From: a virus
Reading direction: 5' to 3' (one strand)
Length of the DNA stretch: 54,784 nucleotides
Virus record (IMG/VR): IMGVR_UViG_3300022932_000095
Coordinates: 1-54,784 of that record
In this document: piece after piece, positions 41,504 to 47,008 of the stretch
Position numbering within the stretch: position 1 is the first letter of the stretch
Layout of the letters: the number at the start of each line of letters is the position of its first letter
Program-made: the position numbers and the translations under genes
The notes under the pieces: model-generated
Told to the model about the DNA's origin: nothing
The model's database searches: none
Seen by the model: the letters and a program-made list of their open reading frames with translations, nothing else

Positions 41504-41529
41504 AGCTATCTTTGCGGATAGCTTTTTTT
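41504..41529 (+). terminator. Terminator hairpin abutting the large terminase start
   Basis: Stem AGCTATC / GATAGCT with a 6-base loop and seven T, ending at the base before ATG 41530. It may act as an attenuator between the terminase genes. Confidence 0.65.
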
Positions 41530-43041
41530 ATGCAGGAACAAATAAAAAGGATTAGACCCCAAGACGGGTATCAATTAGAGTTTGCATCTTCTTCTGCTGA
41601 TATATGTATTGGGGGTGGGGCAGCCGGAGTAGGGAAAACGTTTTCATTGCTATTGGAGCCTATAAGACATAAAGATGTCGACGGGTTTGGATCTGTGATA
41701 TTCAGAAGAACAAACCCGCAAATAAGAAACGAGGGTGGTCTATGGGACACATCAATGGGACTTTATAATTTATTAGGCGCAACCCCAAGACAAAGCAATT
41801 TAGAGTGGATTTTTGAAAAATCAAAACTTAAATTCTCACACCTAGAGTACGAAAAAAATATATACGACTGGCAGGGGTCTCAGATACCATTCATAGGATT
41901 TGATGAGCTTACCCATTTCACAAAAAAAATGTTTTTTTATTTATTAACCCGTAACAGATCTGTATGCGGTGTAAATCCATACGTTAGAGCGACATGCAAT
42001 CCTGATCCGGATAGTTGGGTAGCAGAGTTCATATCTTGGTGGATTGACCAGGAAACAGGGTATGCAATCCCAGAAAGAAGGGGTAAATTAAGGTATCTTA
42101 TTGTTGATGGTGATAATTATTTATGGGGGGATAGCAAAGCAGAGGTTATAGAAAAAGGATGGCATATTATAGGGGAGGTCGTTGAAAGATCTGGGATCGA
42201 CCCAAACGAATTTGTAAAATCTGTGACATTTATAGGTGGCAGTATTTACGACAATAAAGAGTTGTTAAAAGAAAATCCGGCGTATTTAGGGAACCTGCTA
42301 GCGCAAGACAAAGATGTTCAGGCAGCTCTATTACATTCTAATTGGAAAGTTGTGTTGTCTGATAATGATATATACGATTACCCTTCGTTTTTAGGCATGT
42401 TTAACAACTTATACGAAATAGAAAAAGAAGAACGATATATAACAGCGGATATAGCATTGGAGGGCTCTAATAAGTTTATAATAGGCGGATGGGAAGGAAA
42501 AGAGTTGATAGCAATAAAAGTAATAGATAAATCCAACGGAAAGCAGGTTGTTGACGCAATAACCGGTATGGCAAAAGACATAAAATGTCAGAATAAAAAT
42601 ATATGTTATGACAATGACGGTGTGGGCGGGTTTGTCGAAGGATTCATACCTGGGGCTATACCTTTTCACAATGGAGGTTCCGCTATGCCAGATCCAGAAT
42701 CTGTTAATGATAAAAAAACACCAGAAAGATATGAGCACATAAAGGCTCAATGCTATTATAGATCAGGGAAAGCAGTACAAAGAGGAGAATATAAAGTTTC
42801 AGAAACAGTATATAATTCAATGTATGATGATAAAATGACAATAAGGCAACGTTTCATGCATGAAAGAAAGGCTATAAAAAAAGACAAACTAGATCAGGAC
42901 GGAAAATTATGCTTGATAAAAAAGGGGGCTATGAAAGCTAAGCTAAATGGGGACTCTCCTGATTTAATGGATATGTTTATGATGCGGGAAAGATTTGAAT
43001 TAGAGAAAAAAGCTAAAGAACTATCATTCGGATGGGATTAA
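41530..43041 (+). CDS. Terminase large subunit
   Basis: 503 residues from ATG 41530; a TTG at 41512 is in the hairpin. ATPase: Walker A GGAAGVGKT (about 33-41) and Walker B QIPFIGFDELTHF (about 120). RNase H-like nuclease: Asp in YITADIALEGS (about 302), Asp in CYDNDGVGG (about 360) and Asp in the DSPDLMDMF end (about 480). It translocates and cuts DNA at the portal. Type not assigned, so headful versus cos cleavage is open. Confidence 0.93.
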   Translation: MQEQIKRIRPQDGYQLEFASSSADICIGGGAAGVGKTFSLLLEPIRHKDVDGFGSVIFRRTNPQIRNEGGLWDTSMGLYNLLGATPRQSNLEWIFEKSKLKFSHLEYEKNIYDWQGSQIPFIGFDELTHFTKKMFFYLLTRNRSVCGVNPYVRATCNPDPDSWVAEFISWWIDQETGYAIPERRGKLRYLIVDGDNYLWGDSKAEVIEKGWHIIGEVVERSGIDPNEFVKSVTFIGGSIYDNKELLKENPAYLGNLLAQDKDVQAALLHSNWKVVLSDNDIYDYPSFLGMFNNLYEIEKEERYITADIALEGSNKFIIGGWEGKELIAIKVIDKSNGKQVVDAITGMAKDIKCQNKNICYDNDGVGGFVEGFIPGAIPFHNGGSAMPDPESVNDKKTPERYEHIKAQCYYRSGKAVQRGEYKVSETVYNSMYDDKMTIRQRFMHERKAIKKDKLDQDGKLCLIKKGAMKAKLNGDSPDLMDMFMMRERFELEKKAKELSFGWD

Positions 43042-43484: not shown

Positions 43485-43515
43485 TTTGTGGGTGCAATAA
43501 ATATTATTACCTTTA
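43485..43515 (+). promoter_or_regulatory. Promoter TTTG-N19-TACCTTTA
   Basis: TTTG (43485-43488), 19 bases, TACCTTTA (43508-43515), close to consensus. The stretch ATTATTACCTTTACA is nearly repeated at the promoter at 45026. It drives the small gene at 43550. Confidence 0.6.
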
Positions 43516-43549: not shown

Positions 43550-43690
43550 ATGAAAACTCAAACAGGAATCATCACTTATAAAAACTACACTGAGAAAGTT
43601 ACAATAGATAATAATTTTGATACTCAAGCATTGTACGATATAATGAAAAACGACCCTGATTTCGTAAGCTTTAAAATTGAGGAGGCATAG
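43550..43690 (+). CDS. Small accessory protein
   Basis: 46 residues, MKTQTGIITYKNYTEKVTID then acidic; starts downstream of the promoter at 43508, not at the earlier ATG at 43445 which precedes it. Not recognised. Confidence 0.5.
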   Translation: MKTQTGIITYKNYTEKVTIDNNFDTQALYDIMKNDPDFVSFKIEEA

Positions 43691-43974: not shown

Positions 43975-44076
43975 ATGAAAAAGGTATTTAAAGATATACT
44001 TATATGCTTACACCCGTTATTATTAATAGCGTATATAATCATAGTCTTGCATGTATTAAAGCTATACAATTTTTAA
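43975..44076 (+). CDS. Small membrane protein
   Basis: 33 residues, almost entirely one membrane span (LICLHPLLLIAYIIIVLHVL). Three bases after the preceding stop. Confidence 0.45.
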   Translation: MKKVFKDILICLHPLLLIAYIIIVLHVLKLYNF

Positions 44077-44092
44077 ATTACACAGCCCCATA

Positions 44093-44143
44093 ATGGTTCG
44101 CCGAATAATCGCCTCGCATAGAAATATGCGAGGATTTGGCGGT
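44093..44143 (+). ncRNA. Duplicated hairpin RNA element, copy 1
   Basis: Outer stem TCGCCGAAT (44098-44106) / ATTTGGCGG (44134-44142), inner stem CCTCGCAT (44112-44119) / ATGCGAGG (44126-44133), 5-base bulge only on the 5' side. Copy 2 at 44619-44672 keeps both stems with base-pair substitutions. It lies just before a GCCCC-TTCG-GGGGC hairpin (44152-44165) and the gene at 44181. Confidence 0.65.
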
Positions 44144-44144
44144 G

Positions 44145-44165
44145 CAAACAAGCCCCTTCGGGGGC
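44145..44165 (+). promoter_or_regulatory. CAAACAAG motif and UUCG hairpin in a 5' leader
   Basis: CAAACAAG (44145-44152) adjoins a perfect GCCCC / GGGGC stem closed by TTCG (44152-44165), 15 bases before ATG 44181. The leader then reads TATAAGTTATG as in the other two CAAACAAG leaders. Confidence 0.5.
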
Positions 44166-44180
44166 ATTAAAATATAAGTT

Positions 44181-44387
44181 ATGAAAAATCAAACATCAAT
44201 AGTTCATTTTGAAAATAGTAGAAACGGATTAATTTCGGTAGGTTATGCTCTTGACGGTAACCAGTTTTCAGGGTATTACATTGCAAGATATTTAGGTGGT
44301 AAATTGATCGGTTTCCAGGGCACGACTTCATCTAAAGGCAAGAAACCATTTATGAGGATGCCTAAGCAATTTATAGTTAACAATTAA
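44181..44387 (+). CDS. Small accessory protein
   Basis: 68 residues: MKNQTSIVHFENSRNGLISV, strand-rich, basic C-terminus. Its leader holds copy 1 of the duplicated hairpin. Not recognised. Confidence 0.5.
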   Translation: MKNQTSIVHFENSRNGLISVGYALDGNQFSGYYIARYLGGKLIGFQGTTSSKGKKPFMRMPKQFIVNN

Positions 44388-44397
44388 TAATATCATT

Positions 44398-44604
44398 ATG
44401 AAACTCAAAATTACATCACAACCAACCTACGATCTTTTAGTTTCGAGAGGACACGGAGTTCCCAGAACAGATAATAATGACATACAAGACGGTTGGATAG
44501 TTGGTAAAAGATATTTAGTTAAACCAACTAATGAGCGAGAGCCATTAAAAGTACGTTGTACGCAAGATTGCCCTTATCATCTACAGGTAGTACACGAAGA
44601 TTAA
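44398..44604 (+). CDS. Small accessory protein
   Basis: 68 residues: MKLKITSQPTYDLLVSRGHG, then WIVGKRYLVKPTN. Strand-rich, perhaps an SH3-like barrel. Not recognised. Confidence 0.45.
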   Translation: MKLKITSQPTYDLLVSRGHGVPRTDNNDIQDGWIVGKRYLVKPTNEREPLKVRCTQDCPYHLQVVHED

Positions 44605-44618
44605 AAATAACCTCTAAC

Positions 44619-44672
44619 ATGGTTCCGCTGAATACAACCGCCTCGCATATTACTATGCGGGGATTTGGCGGT
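44619..44672 (+). ncRNA. Duplicated hairpin RNA element, copy 2
   Basis: Outer stem CCGCTGAAT (44625-44633) / ATTTGGCGG (44663-44671), inner stem CCTCGCATA (44641-44649) / TATGCGGGG (44654-44662), 7-base 5' bulge. Relative to copy 1, C-G becomes T-G in the outer stem, T-G becomes C-G at its base, and T-A becomes T-G in the inner stem. It is 17 bases before the gene at 44689. Confidence 0.65.
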
Positions 44673-44688
44673 AAAAAATCTATAGATC

Positions 44689-44805
44689 ATGGAAAAATAT
44701 CATTCAGAAATACAAAACACTTTAGACAACACGATCCTAAGCGTGACAATTACATTCTTAATAGCCGGTATATCCTTGGCAATTTCAATAGCGTTTATTT
44801 TATAA
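44689..44805 (+). CDS. Small membrane protein
   Basis: 38 residues; polar start (MEKYHSEIQNTLDNTIL) and one membrane span (VTITFLIAGISLAISIAFIL). Directly after hairpin copy 2. Confidence 0.45.
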   Translation: MEKYHSEIQNTLDNTILSVTITFLIAGISLAISIAFIL

Positions 44806-45002: not shown

Positions 45003-45033
45003 CTTGATAATACGCGTATTATTATTACCTTTA
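45003..45033 (+). promoter_or_regulatory. Promoter with 16-bp palindrome between its elements
   Basis: CTTG (45003-45006), 19 bases, TACCTTTA (45026-45033). Within the spacer lies the perfect 16-bp palindrome ATAATACGCGTATTAT (45007-45022), whose core also lies at the promoter at 33285. Downstream, ATCAG (45038-45042) can pair with CTGAT (45054-45058) around a loop with CAAACAAA. Confidence 0.6.
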
Positions 45034-45379: not shown

Positions 45380-45621
45380 CCAACGGTGAATCTGTTTTGT
45401 TGCGTGTATCATAACAGAACGGGCATATGATTGGGTTCGAATCCCTAAACGTTGGCAAAAGCCCTTGTGAAGTACTGGTGTCGTTAATGCTTTCAAAGGG
45501 CAATTATAAACGAGTCGGCATACGGAGAAGTAAGGTGCCCTGTATTAACAGGGCAGTATTATAGTAAAACATGAGAGCGTTTAATTGAGATAGGTGTTGC
45601 TGGATGGCGCACCTATTTTTT
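45380..45621 (+). ncRNA. Structured non-coding region with tRNA-like T arm
   Basis: About 240 bases without an ORF, holding several stems in a row: CCAACG (45380-45385) / CGTTGG (45450-45455) enclosing TCTGTT / AACAGA and a canonical T arm GGGTTCGAATCCC (45433-45445); GCCCTT-TGAAG (45461-45472) / its partner ending at 45501; TGCCCTGT / ACAGGGCA (45536-45555); and a terminal stem with T6. The first part looks like a tRNA without D arm and with a 16-base middle loop. It ends just upstream of the portal gene. Confidence 0.55.
45590..45621 (+). terminator. Terminator before the portal gene
   Basis: Stem ATAGGTG / CACCTAT (45590-45596, 45610-45616) followed by six T. Confidence 0.8.
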
Positions 45622-45623
45622 GT

Positions 45624-45655
45624 TTTGTCTTTGTGTAACAAATCAGTTACATTTG
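45624..45655 (+). promoter_or_regulatory. Portal operon promoter TTTG-N20-TACATTTG
   Basis: TTTG (45624-45627), 20 bases, TACATTTG (45648-45655), an exact consensus match. The -7 element ends only three bases before ATG 45659, so the mRNA would be leaderless or nearly so. Confidence 0.7.
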
Positions 45656-45658
45656 TTT

Positions 45659-47008
45659 ATGAACTTAATAGAATCAATATTCTCATCAGCAATTAGCAAG
45701 CGGGTTAATGAAGTAATTGCAGAAAAACAATCTACCACATTTGCCAATGCTATGACTTCTATTAATATTGGTCTCAATGAATCTTTACCTACTATAAATC
45801 CTGACGCAGCGGACTACTATCAAACATTTAAGACTATTGGGGCTGTTTATGAAGTTACCGATGCGATAACAAAGAAGGTTATATCATGTCCAGTAGTAGC
45901 ATACAAAGTAAAAAACAAAAAGAAGTTACAACAATCAAAAACACTCGAAAAGATAGACCCAGTCCAGTCTTATTTACTGAAATTACAAGCTGTTGAGGAA
46001 GTTGATGTGCCTGGATTGCAAGATATGCTTACTATGGGCAGAGCAAACCCATATCAGACTGGTTCTCAATTTATATGGACAACTGTACTGTCTCTATTGC
46101 TTGGAGGTAATACATACGTCCACCCGTTAAAGGCTGGCAAAAAAGTTAAAGAACTATACTGCTTCCCTAATATGTCTATCGATGCTGATCCTGATGATTT
46201 AATGGATCCAATTAGGGGGTACACGTTATTAACCTCTGATAGAACTAAGTTTGATAAAGACGAAATACAGCACTTTAAAACAGGAACTCCGGCCCCTGTT
46301 GATAGGAGGATGGAATATCTGTATGGAGTATCACCATTAAGGGCTTATTTAGAATCACTAAGATCTATTAAAGAAGGGAAAGAGCAATCCAGTAAACAAG
46401 CTAAGAACGGAGGAGTGTTTGGTGTACTATCTCCACGTGACAAGGAAGACAATCTATCTACTGACTCAAAAAAGCAGTTAAAAGAAAAAATGATTGAAGC
46501 CAGGAGAAGCAATGATGAATTAGCTAGGGTATTCCCGTCGTCTATATCGTTATCTTGGCAGAATATAGGACTTCCAGCATCAGATCTTCAATTGCTGGAG
46601 TTAGTAGGTGCAAGTGAAAAAGACGTATATAGAGCTTATCATTGGCCTTTAAATTTCCATGATCAGTCAGGTAACACCTTTAGCAATCAAGGTATGGCAA
46701 CAAAACAAGCTATATATGATGCTGTGGCTCCTATATGTGACATGTTAGGCGAGTCATTCACCCATATATTAGGCGAAGGATACGGATTTGACTATATAGA
46801 ATGGGACTACACTCAGTTACCAGAGATGGCTGTCGATATGAAGGCTGTAGCAGAATACCTTGGTGCACTACCTAAAGGTGTACTAACATACAACGAAATG
46901 AGGTCTGCAATAAGGTATGGAGAAAAAACAGAAGCCTACATGAATGAGCATTATGTAGACTCCGGTTTAATAACTCTGAAAAGTGCTTATGAAGGATTGA
47001 CTAGTTAA
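45659..47008 (+). CDS. Portal protein
   Basis: 449 residues from ATG 45659 (an earlier start at 45620 lies in the terminator and promoter). Portal family features: NVGL-like start replaced by MNLIESIFSSAISKRVNEVI, a VTDAITKKVISCPVVAYKV strand, NTYVHPLKAGKKVKELYCFP, and YGVSPLRAYLESLRSI, a hallmark of HK97-type portals. It forms the dodecameric DNA gate at the head vertex. Ends four bases from the convergent glycosyltransferase gene. Confidence 0.9.
   Translation: MNLIESIFSSAISKRVNEVIAEKQSTTFANAMTSINIGLNESLPTINPDAADYYQTFKTIGAVYEVTDAITKKVISCPVVAYKVKNKKKLQQSKTLEKIDPVQSYLLKLQAVEEVDVPGLQDMLTMGRANPYQTGSQFIWTTVLSLLLGGNTYVHPLKAGKKVKELYCFPNMSIDADPDDLMDPIRGYTLLTSDRTKFDKDEIQHFKTGTPAPVDRRMEYLYGVSPLRAYLESLRSIKEGKEQSSKQAKNGGVFGVLSPRDKEDNLSTDSKKQLKEKMIEARRSNDELARVFPSSISLSWQNIGLPASDLQLLELVGASEKDVYRAYHWPLNFHDQSGNTFSNQGMATKQAIYDAVAPICDMLGESFTHILGEGYGFDYIEWDYTQLPEMAVDMKAVAEYLGALPKGVLTYNEMRSAIRYGEKTEAYMNEHYVDSGLITLKSAYEGLTS

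What the first reader, a model, noticed from the sequence alone, without database searches (positions are those of the whole stretch)
44093..44672. Two-copy hairpin RNA with covarying stems
Copies of 51 and 54 bases, 526 bases apart, keep an outer 9-bp stem, an inner 8-9-bp stem, a one-sided bulge and the strand ATTTGGCGG, while loops, bulge length and several pairs differ in ways that keep pairing (T-G to C-G, C-G to T-G, T-A to T-G). Each is just upstream of a small gene. Selection on RNA structure is the simplest explanation, and I recognise no described family.
Basis: partly seen in the sequence, partly recalled or inferred. Interest (0 to 1): 0.75.

Follow-up and report, generated by a model that had tools for sequence, protein, structure and literature searches.

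The report
Phage hairpin RNA ahead of genes
Two matching RNA hairpins in this phage belong to an undescribed family that many otherwise unrelated phages place just before the start of small genes, so it is probably a shared, phage-borne signal for cutting or translating multi-gene messages.

Summary
Both copies (44098-44143 and 44625-44672) fold as described (z -4.2 and -3.3). "Two-copy" understates it. Pattern and covariance-model searches found about 90 distinct members in viral contigs and one Pedobacter prophage, often 2-6 per phage, all on the coding strand. The shape is: outer stem, UUU-containing bulge, inner GC stem, loop, then GGYGGUANAAAC and a start codon 12-49 nt on.

An unbiased scan using only the 3' strand recovered 42 distinct sites. 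In 41, GGGG sits in an upstream hairpin, and inner pairs 5-8 use all four Watson-Crick types. Shuffle controls support covariation. A co-directional ORF follows 52 of 55 elements, against 31% of random positions.

No Rfam family matches. None of 395 Bacteroidota genomes holds the exact 3' motif. Carrier phages share no common gene and mostly lack Shine-Dalgarno sites, so a host factor is likely.

Best reading: an intercistronic mRNA punctuation element, placed like T7 RNase III sites and gene-associated like mycobacteriophage SAS/ESAS. The RNA family is well supported. Processing versus translational control is inferred only.

The parts
44098..44143 (+). Hairpin element copy 1: outer stem 44098-44106/44134-44142, 5' bulge 44107-44111, inner stem 44112-44120/44125-44133, GAAA loop 44121-44124
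   Evidence: covariance model R1 53.1 bits, R2 46.0 bits
44625..44672 (+). Hairpin element copy 2: outer stem 44625-44633/44663-44671, 5' bulge 44634-44640, inner stem 44641-44649/44654-44662, TTAC loop 44650-44653
   Evidence: R1 57.6 bits, R2 52.2 bits
44125..44150 (+). Conserved 3' strand of copy 1: TATGCGAGG-ATTT-GGCGG-TGCAAACA (family consensus GGGG-N-TTT-GGYGG-TANAAAC)
   Evidence: alignments A1-A4
44654..44679 (+). Conserved 3' strand of copy 2: TATGCGGGG-ATTT-GGCGG-TAAAAAAT
   Evidence: alignments A1-A4
44152..44165 (+). Second small hairpin GCCCC-TTCG-GGGGC between copy 1 and the next start codon; not part of the family consensus, though the Pedobacter relative also has a second small hairpin there
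   Evidence: sequence
44181..44387 (+). Small gene after copy 1 (68 aa, no family match)
44689..44805 (+). Small gene after copy 2 (38 aa, hydrophobic C-terminal half, no family match)
43975..44076 (+). Small ORF (33 aa) whose stop lies 21 nt before copy 1
   Evidence: mechanical ORF
44398..44604 (+). Small gene (68 aa) whose stop lies 20 nt before copy 2
43485..43515 (+). Promoter-like TTTG-N19-TACCTTTA; its repeat (45004-45033) marks the far end, so both hairpins probably lie inside one transcription unit
   Evidence: sequence, repeat D4; match to the Bacteroidota promoter consensus is from own knowledge, not tested

Best explanation
A cis-acting RNA hairpin family, carried by phages, that punctuates polycistronic phage mRNA between genes. 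Shown: the RNA fold, its covariation, its strict orientation, its place between a stop codon and the next start codon, several copies per phage, and absence of the exact motif from sampled Bacteroidota chromosomes. Inferred: a conserved host factor recognises the inner hairpin plus the near-invariant UUU bulge and the UANAAAC tail. I think the most likely outcome is endonucleolytic processing (RNase III- or RNase E/G-type) at the 3' bulge, as at T7 early-mRNA sites. That would leave the upstream message with a protective 3' hairpin and give the downstream gene its own unstructured A-rich leader. That a cis-acting mRNA element of the downstream gene is involved: about 0.9. That the act is processing: about 0.4 to 0.45.
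For: Fold and stability. Members were recovered with only the 3' strand as bait: 42 distinct, 41 with GGGG in an upstream hairpin, 38 with an outer stem, 38 with an ATG-ORF within 60 nt; inner pairs 5-8 use all four Watson-Crick types. Covariation scores exceed all 500 shuffles, and own 5'/3' partners fold better than swapped partners in 300 of 300 trials. 52/55 precede a co-directional ORF against 31% at random. The upstream stop usually lies 1-39 nt before the outer stem and the upstream gene is co-directional in 52/55. Spacing to the start is almost never below 12-14 nt, about the upstream footprint of an initiating ribosome. Several copies per phage on one strand. Carriers share no common gene, which points to a host factor.
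Against: No transcript, cleavage or expression data exist here. RNase III has little sequence specificity, so the near-constant UUU and UANAAAC are not fully explained by it. Spacing to the start codon varies (12-49 nt). The constancy of GGGG and UUU is partly imposed by search patterns. Some members (e.g. L213:1187) have a poorly paired outer stem.
Confidence: 0.45

Rival explanations
1. A translation-initiation element: the hairpin and UANAAAC tail sit against the 5' edge of the initiating ribosome and, through a host or phage factor, raise or gate translation of the following gene in hosts that do not use Shine-Dalgarno pairing.
For: Floor of 12-14 nt and a cluster at 14-17 nt (17 of 51) between element and ATG. 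Shine-Dalgarno motifs in carrier phages are at background in nearly all records; Bacteroidia ribosomes hide the anti-SD (PMC9976891, abstract). Constant unpaired nucleotides suggest specific recognition.
Against: Spacing otherwise ranges up to 49 nt. Shuffling the element barely changes predicted openness of the start region (0.670 vs 0.656, 33 of 51 higher), so simple insulation is not supported. No notable complementarity to one Bacteroidota 16S rRNA.
Confidence: 0.33
2. A weak intrinsic terminator or attenuator between genes: the GC hairpin plus a short T-run pauses or partly terminates RNA polymerase.
For: The inner hairpin resembles host terminators of the form AAAGCCCCGC...GCGGGGCTTTTTT found by the same model in Bacteroidota chromosomes. 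It lies soon after stop codons.
Against: The T-run is only 3-4 long and is followed by GG. Outer-stem covariation lies 3' of the T-run and would be lost at termination. A start codon follows closely in nearly all cases and the flanking genes are co-directional.
Confidence: 0.1
3. A DNA-level element: mobile palindrome, recombination linker at gene boundaries, or a hairpin promoter of the N4 type.
For: Some inner hairpins are identical between phages in different gene contexts (for example GCCCCGCCACTACCAAGTGTGCGGGG in L007 and L340:2627), so shuffling at these borders has probably happened.
Against: T.G pairs dominate one inner pair (26 of 40; 14 U.G against 1 U-A), a sign of RNA wobble. One orientation relative to genes. 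No gene is common to the carriers.
Confidence: 0.07

Closest known systems
Bacteriophage T7 (and SP82) early-mRNA RNase III sites (own knowledge; no paper found in the library)
   Same: Several hairpins per phage, between co-directional genes, one-sided bulge or internal loop, each just before a gene
   Different: Different sequence and hosts; here GGGG-N-UUU-GGYGG-UANAAAC is shared across unrelated phages; cleavage not shown
Start-associated sequences (SAS/ESAS) of cluster K mycobacteriophages (PMC3203893)
   Same: Repeated, one orientation, upstream of start codons of a subset of non-structural genes, in unusually wide gaps, absent from the host, associated with genes of different families
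   Different: SAS is a 13-bp Shine-Dalgarno-containing motif typically 3-7 bp from the start codon, and its authors found little support for RNA pairing in the ESAS repeats; here RNA pairing is supported and no SD is present
Hairpin at the tail/lysis border of many mycobacteriophages (Brocalys, Yorick, Courthouse, Aggie, Purky)
   Same: CCCCGCCACC-loop-GGTG-C-GCGGGG with a 1-nt bulge like some members here, between a stop codon and the next start
   Different: No outer GGYGG stem; followed by an SD-like GAAAGG; only 23.6 bits with R2; treated as convergent
Bacteroidota intrinsic terminators
   Same: Inner hairpin sequence CCCCGC/GCGGGG
   Different: Long T-run, no conserved GGYGG strand beyond it, not tied to a following start codon

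Membership tests
Any Rfam 15 family | Covariance-model score above the family's gathering threshold | tested here: not met
   No match in the window or in 11 contigs with typical members; at relaxed E-value none overlapped the elements
This hairpin family (models R1/R2) | Inner hairpin, TTT bulge, GGYGG outer strand, TANAAAC tail, co-directional start within ~50 nt | tested here: met
   Window copies 57.6 and 53.1 bits with R1 and 52.2 and 46.0 with R2; both helped train the models, but independent members were found with the 3' motif alone
T7-type RNase III processing site | Intercistronic hairpin with one-sided bulge in a polycistronic message | tested here: met
   co-transcription itself is inferred
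T7-type RNase III processing site | Cleavage by RNase III at the site | not testable with these tools
   needs RNA from infection
SAS/ESAS | 13-bp GGGATAGGAGCCC within a few nt of the start codon | tested here: not met
   sequence of all members
Intrinsic terminator | GC hairpin followed by a long T-run | tested here: not met
   TTT or TTTT then mostly GG, against host terminators
REP or mobile DNA palindrome | Placement regardless of transcription direction | tested here: not met
   52/55 directional
GUCCY-hairpin and other Bacteroidetes candidate RNAs not in Rfam (PMC2864571, PMC8040213) | Match to the published alignment | not tested
   GUCCY-hairpin is listed without an Rfam accession in PMC2864571; supplements could not be read

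The most novel reading that the evidence does not exclude
Unrelated phages of hosts without Shine-Dalgarno initiation share a common RNA signal, a hairpin with a UUU bulge and UANAAAC tail, that recruits one conserved host factor to start or boost translation gene by gene: a bacterial analogue of a viral ribosome-recruiting element.
Probability: 0.15. Interest if true: 0.88.

Novelty: new variant of a known kind. Interest (0 to 1): 0.62.

Why it matters
It is a strongly supported, undescribed structured-RNA family that several phage lineages place before small genes of unknown function in genomes without Shine-Dalgarno sites. If it is a processing or translation signal, it shows how such phages set the output of single genes within an operon, gives a handle for finding the host factor, and offers a way to predict true starts of tiny phage genes.

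Tried and rejected
Rfam, strict and relaxed: nothing. DNA similarity of the region to phage and plasmid collections: none. The genome contigs pattern scan gave 49 hits; only the Pedobacter prophage is an evident member, the rest read as chance or unrelated matches. R2 hits in 395 Bacteroidota genomes outside that prophage: the 21 top loci inspected are mostly ordinary terminators, some coding. Two tRNA-end hits of an early pattern (L125, L128) were set aside as terminators after tRNA genes on the other strand. Mycobacteriophage hairpins looked homologous at first (E 2e-3) but lack the outer stem and carry SD-like motifs. 16S rRNA complementarity is not above shuffles. Start-site insulation: negligible. 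A shared trans-acting phage gene: none; the commonest family occurs in 10 of 30 records. Bacteroidota promoter motif as a host marker: not clearly enriched.

Full report
Each has a GC-rich inner stem, an outer stem formed with ATTTGGCGG, a one-sided bulge, and a small ORF after it. Both fold well below shuffled sequences. The differences between the two copies are all one-sided and keep pairing, so two copies alone do not prove covariation.

Relatives. A pattern scan of viral contigs for GCGRGGATTTGGCGG returned many chance coding matches, but also a clear group of intergenic hairpins just before start codons. Fourteen members gave model R1. Searching whole phage records with R1 found further copies clustered on one strand, for example six in about 4.3 kb of G004. 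Twenty-five members gave R2 with inner and outer stems. Later scans used CCCCGC...GCGGGGNTTTNNNNGTANAAA and finally only the 3' strand GGGGNTTTGGYGGTANAAAC (61 stretches). My rough chance estimate for the last is about three; it depends on an assumed collection size.

Proof of RNA structure. The last scan is the cleanest test because it demands no hairpin. Of 42 distinct sites, 41 have GGGG paired in an upstream hairpin, mostly of quite different sequence, 38 pair the outer GGYGG, and 38 have an ATG-ORF within 60 nt. Inner pairs 5 to 8 use all four Watson-Crick types. On A2 and A3, double-sided changes, percentage paired and the covariation score exceed every shuffle and the slid controls. On A4, cells with double changes were 37 against 8.8 in shuffles. 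Outer strands fold better with their own partners than with swapped ones, 0 of 300. Relatedness inflates such counts, and the models were trained on pattern-selected members. Still, G.U pairs are common, as expected for RNA rather than a DNA palindrome.

Anatomy. 5'-outer strand (often CCACC or CCGCC), CCY plus a variable stem with some 1-nt bulges, loop (often GNRA-like or CTGARAYAAA), variable stem plus RGGG, then N-UUU, GGYGG, UANAAAC, then 12-49 nt to the start codon. In the window copies and the Pedobacter copy the outer strand lies further upstream (9-bp stem, one mismatch in Pedobacter, 5' bulge of 5, 7 and 13 nt), with a weaker alternative next to the inner stem.

Setting. Mechanical ORFs place 52 of 55 elements 1-45 nt before a co-directional start, against 31% of random positions and 6 of 55 on the other strand. 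The upstream stop is usually 1-39 nt before the outer stem, and the upstream gene is co-directional in 52 of 55. Apart from two elements that abut an ATG, none is closer than 12-14 nt to the start. Downstream genes are small and mostly without known family. Carrier phages fall into several lineages; no gene is common to them, the widest family being in 10 of 30 records. Shine-Dalgarno motifs are at background in nearly all carriers, the Pedobacter prophage being an exception at 0.27 against 0.06. Hosts other than Pedobacter were not established. In the window, both copies lie between terminase (41512-43041) and portal (45620-47008) genes, in a run of tiny ORFs flanked by two near-identical promoter-like repeats.

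Distribution. The exact 3' motif is absent from 395 Bacteroidota genomes. R2 finds the two Pedobacter prophage copies there; the other top loci are mostly terminators, with some coding sequence. Rfam has no match. Cultured phage genomes gave only a mycobacteriophage look-alike that lacks the outer stem.

Mechanism. A cis-acting mRNA element of the downstream gene is well supported by orientation and placement. Which act it performs is inferred. The T7-like setting, the 3' bulge and the lack of a fixed distance to the start favour processing. The spacing floor, the SD-less genomes and the constant unpaired bases favour translational control. A terminator is disfavoured because the T-run is short and the covarying outer stem lies beyond it. 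DNA-level roles are disfavoured by G.U pairs and direction, although identical hairpins in different phages suggest that gene borders have been shuffled at these elements.

Noticed in passing
window 43485-43515 and 45004-45033: Two near-identical promoter-like repeats (TTTG/CTTG-N19-TACCTTTA plus shared downstream bases) flank the run of tiny genes that holds both hairpins.
   Followed up: partly
window 43550-43690 and 44181-44387: Two small genes begin alike (MKTQTGIITYKN / MKNQTSIVHFEN, repeat D2), perhaps paralogues; only the second has the hairpin.
   Followed up: no
L225:1501-1544 and L255-L258: Many mycobacteriophages of several clusters share a conserved hairpin (CCCCGCCACC-loop-GGTG-C-GCGGGG) near the tail/lysis border, mostly right before the lysis cassette.
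   Followed up: partly
L213, L214, L340: In three related phages the order of small genes differs while hairpins stay at gene borders; the gene MKRYFTYQ has its own hairpin in L340 but follows another hairpin-bearing gene in L213 and L214.
   Followed up: partly
L279, L260, L356, L348 elements: A subgroup has a conserved 10-nt loop CTGARAYAAA under different closing pairs, possibly a recognition loop.
   Followed up: no
L125:12938-12971 and L128:115-158: The complement of the motif also arises where a tRNA 3' end runs into a terminator, a trap for pattern searches.
   Followed up: partly
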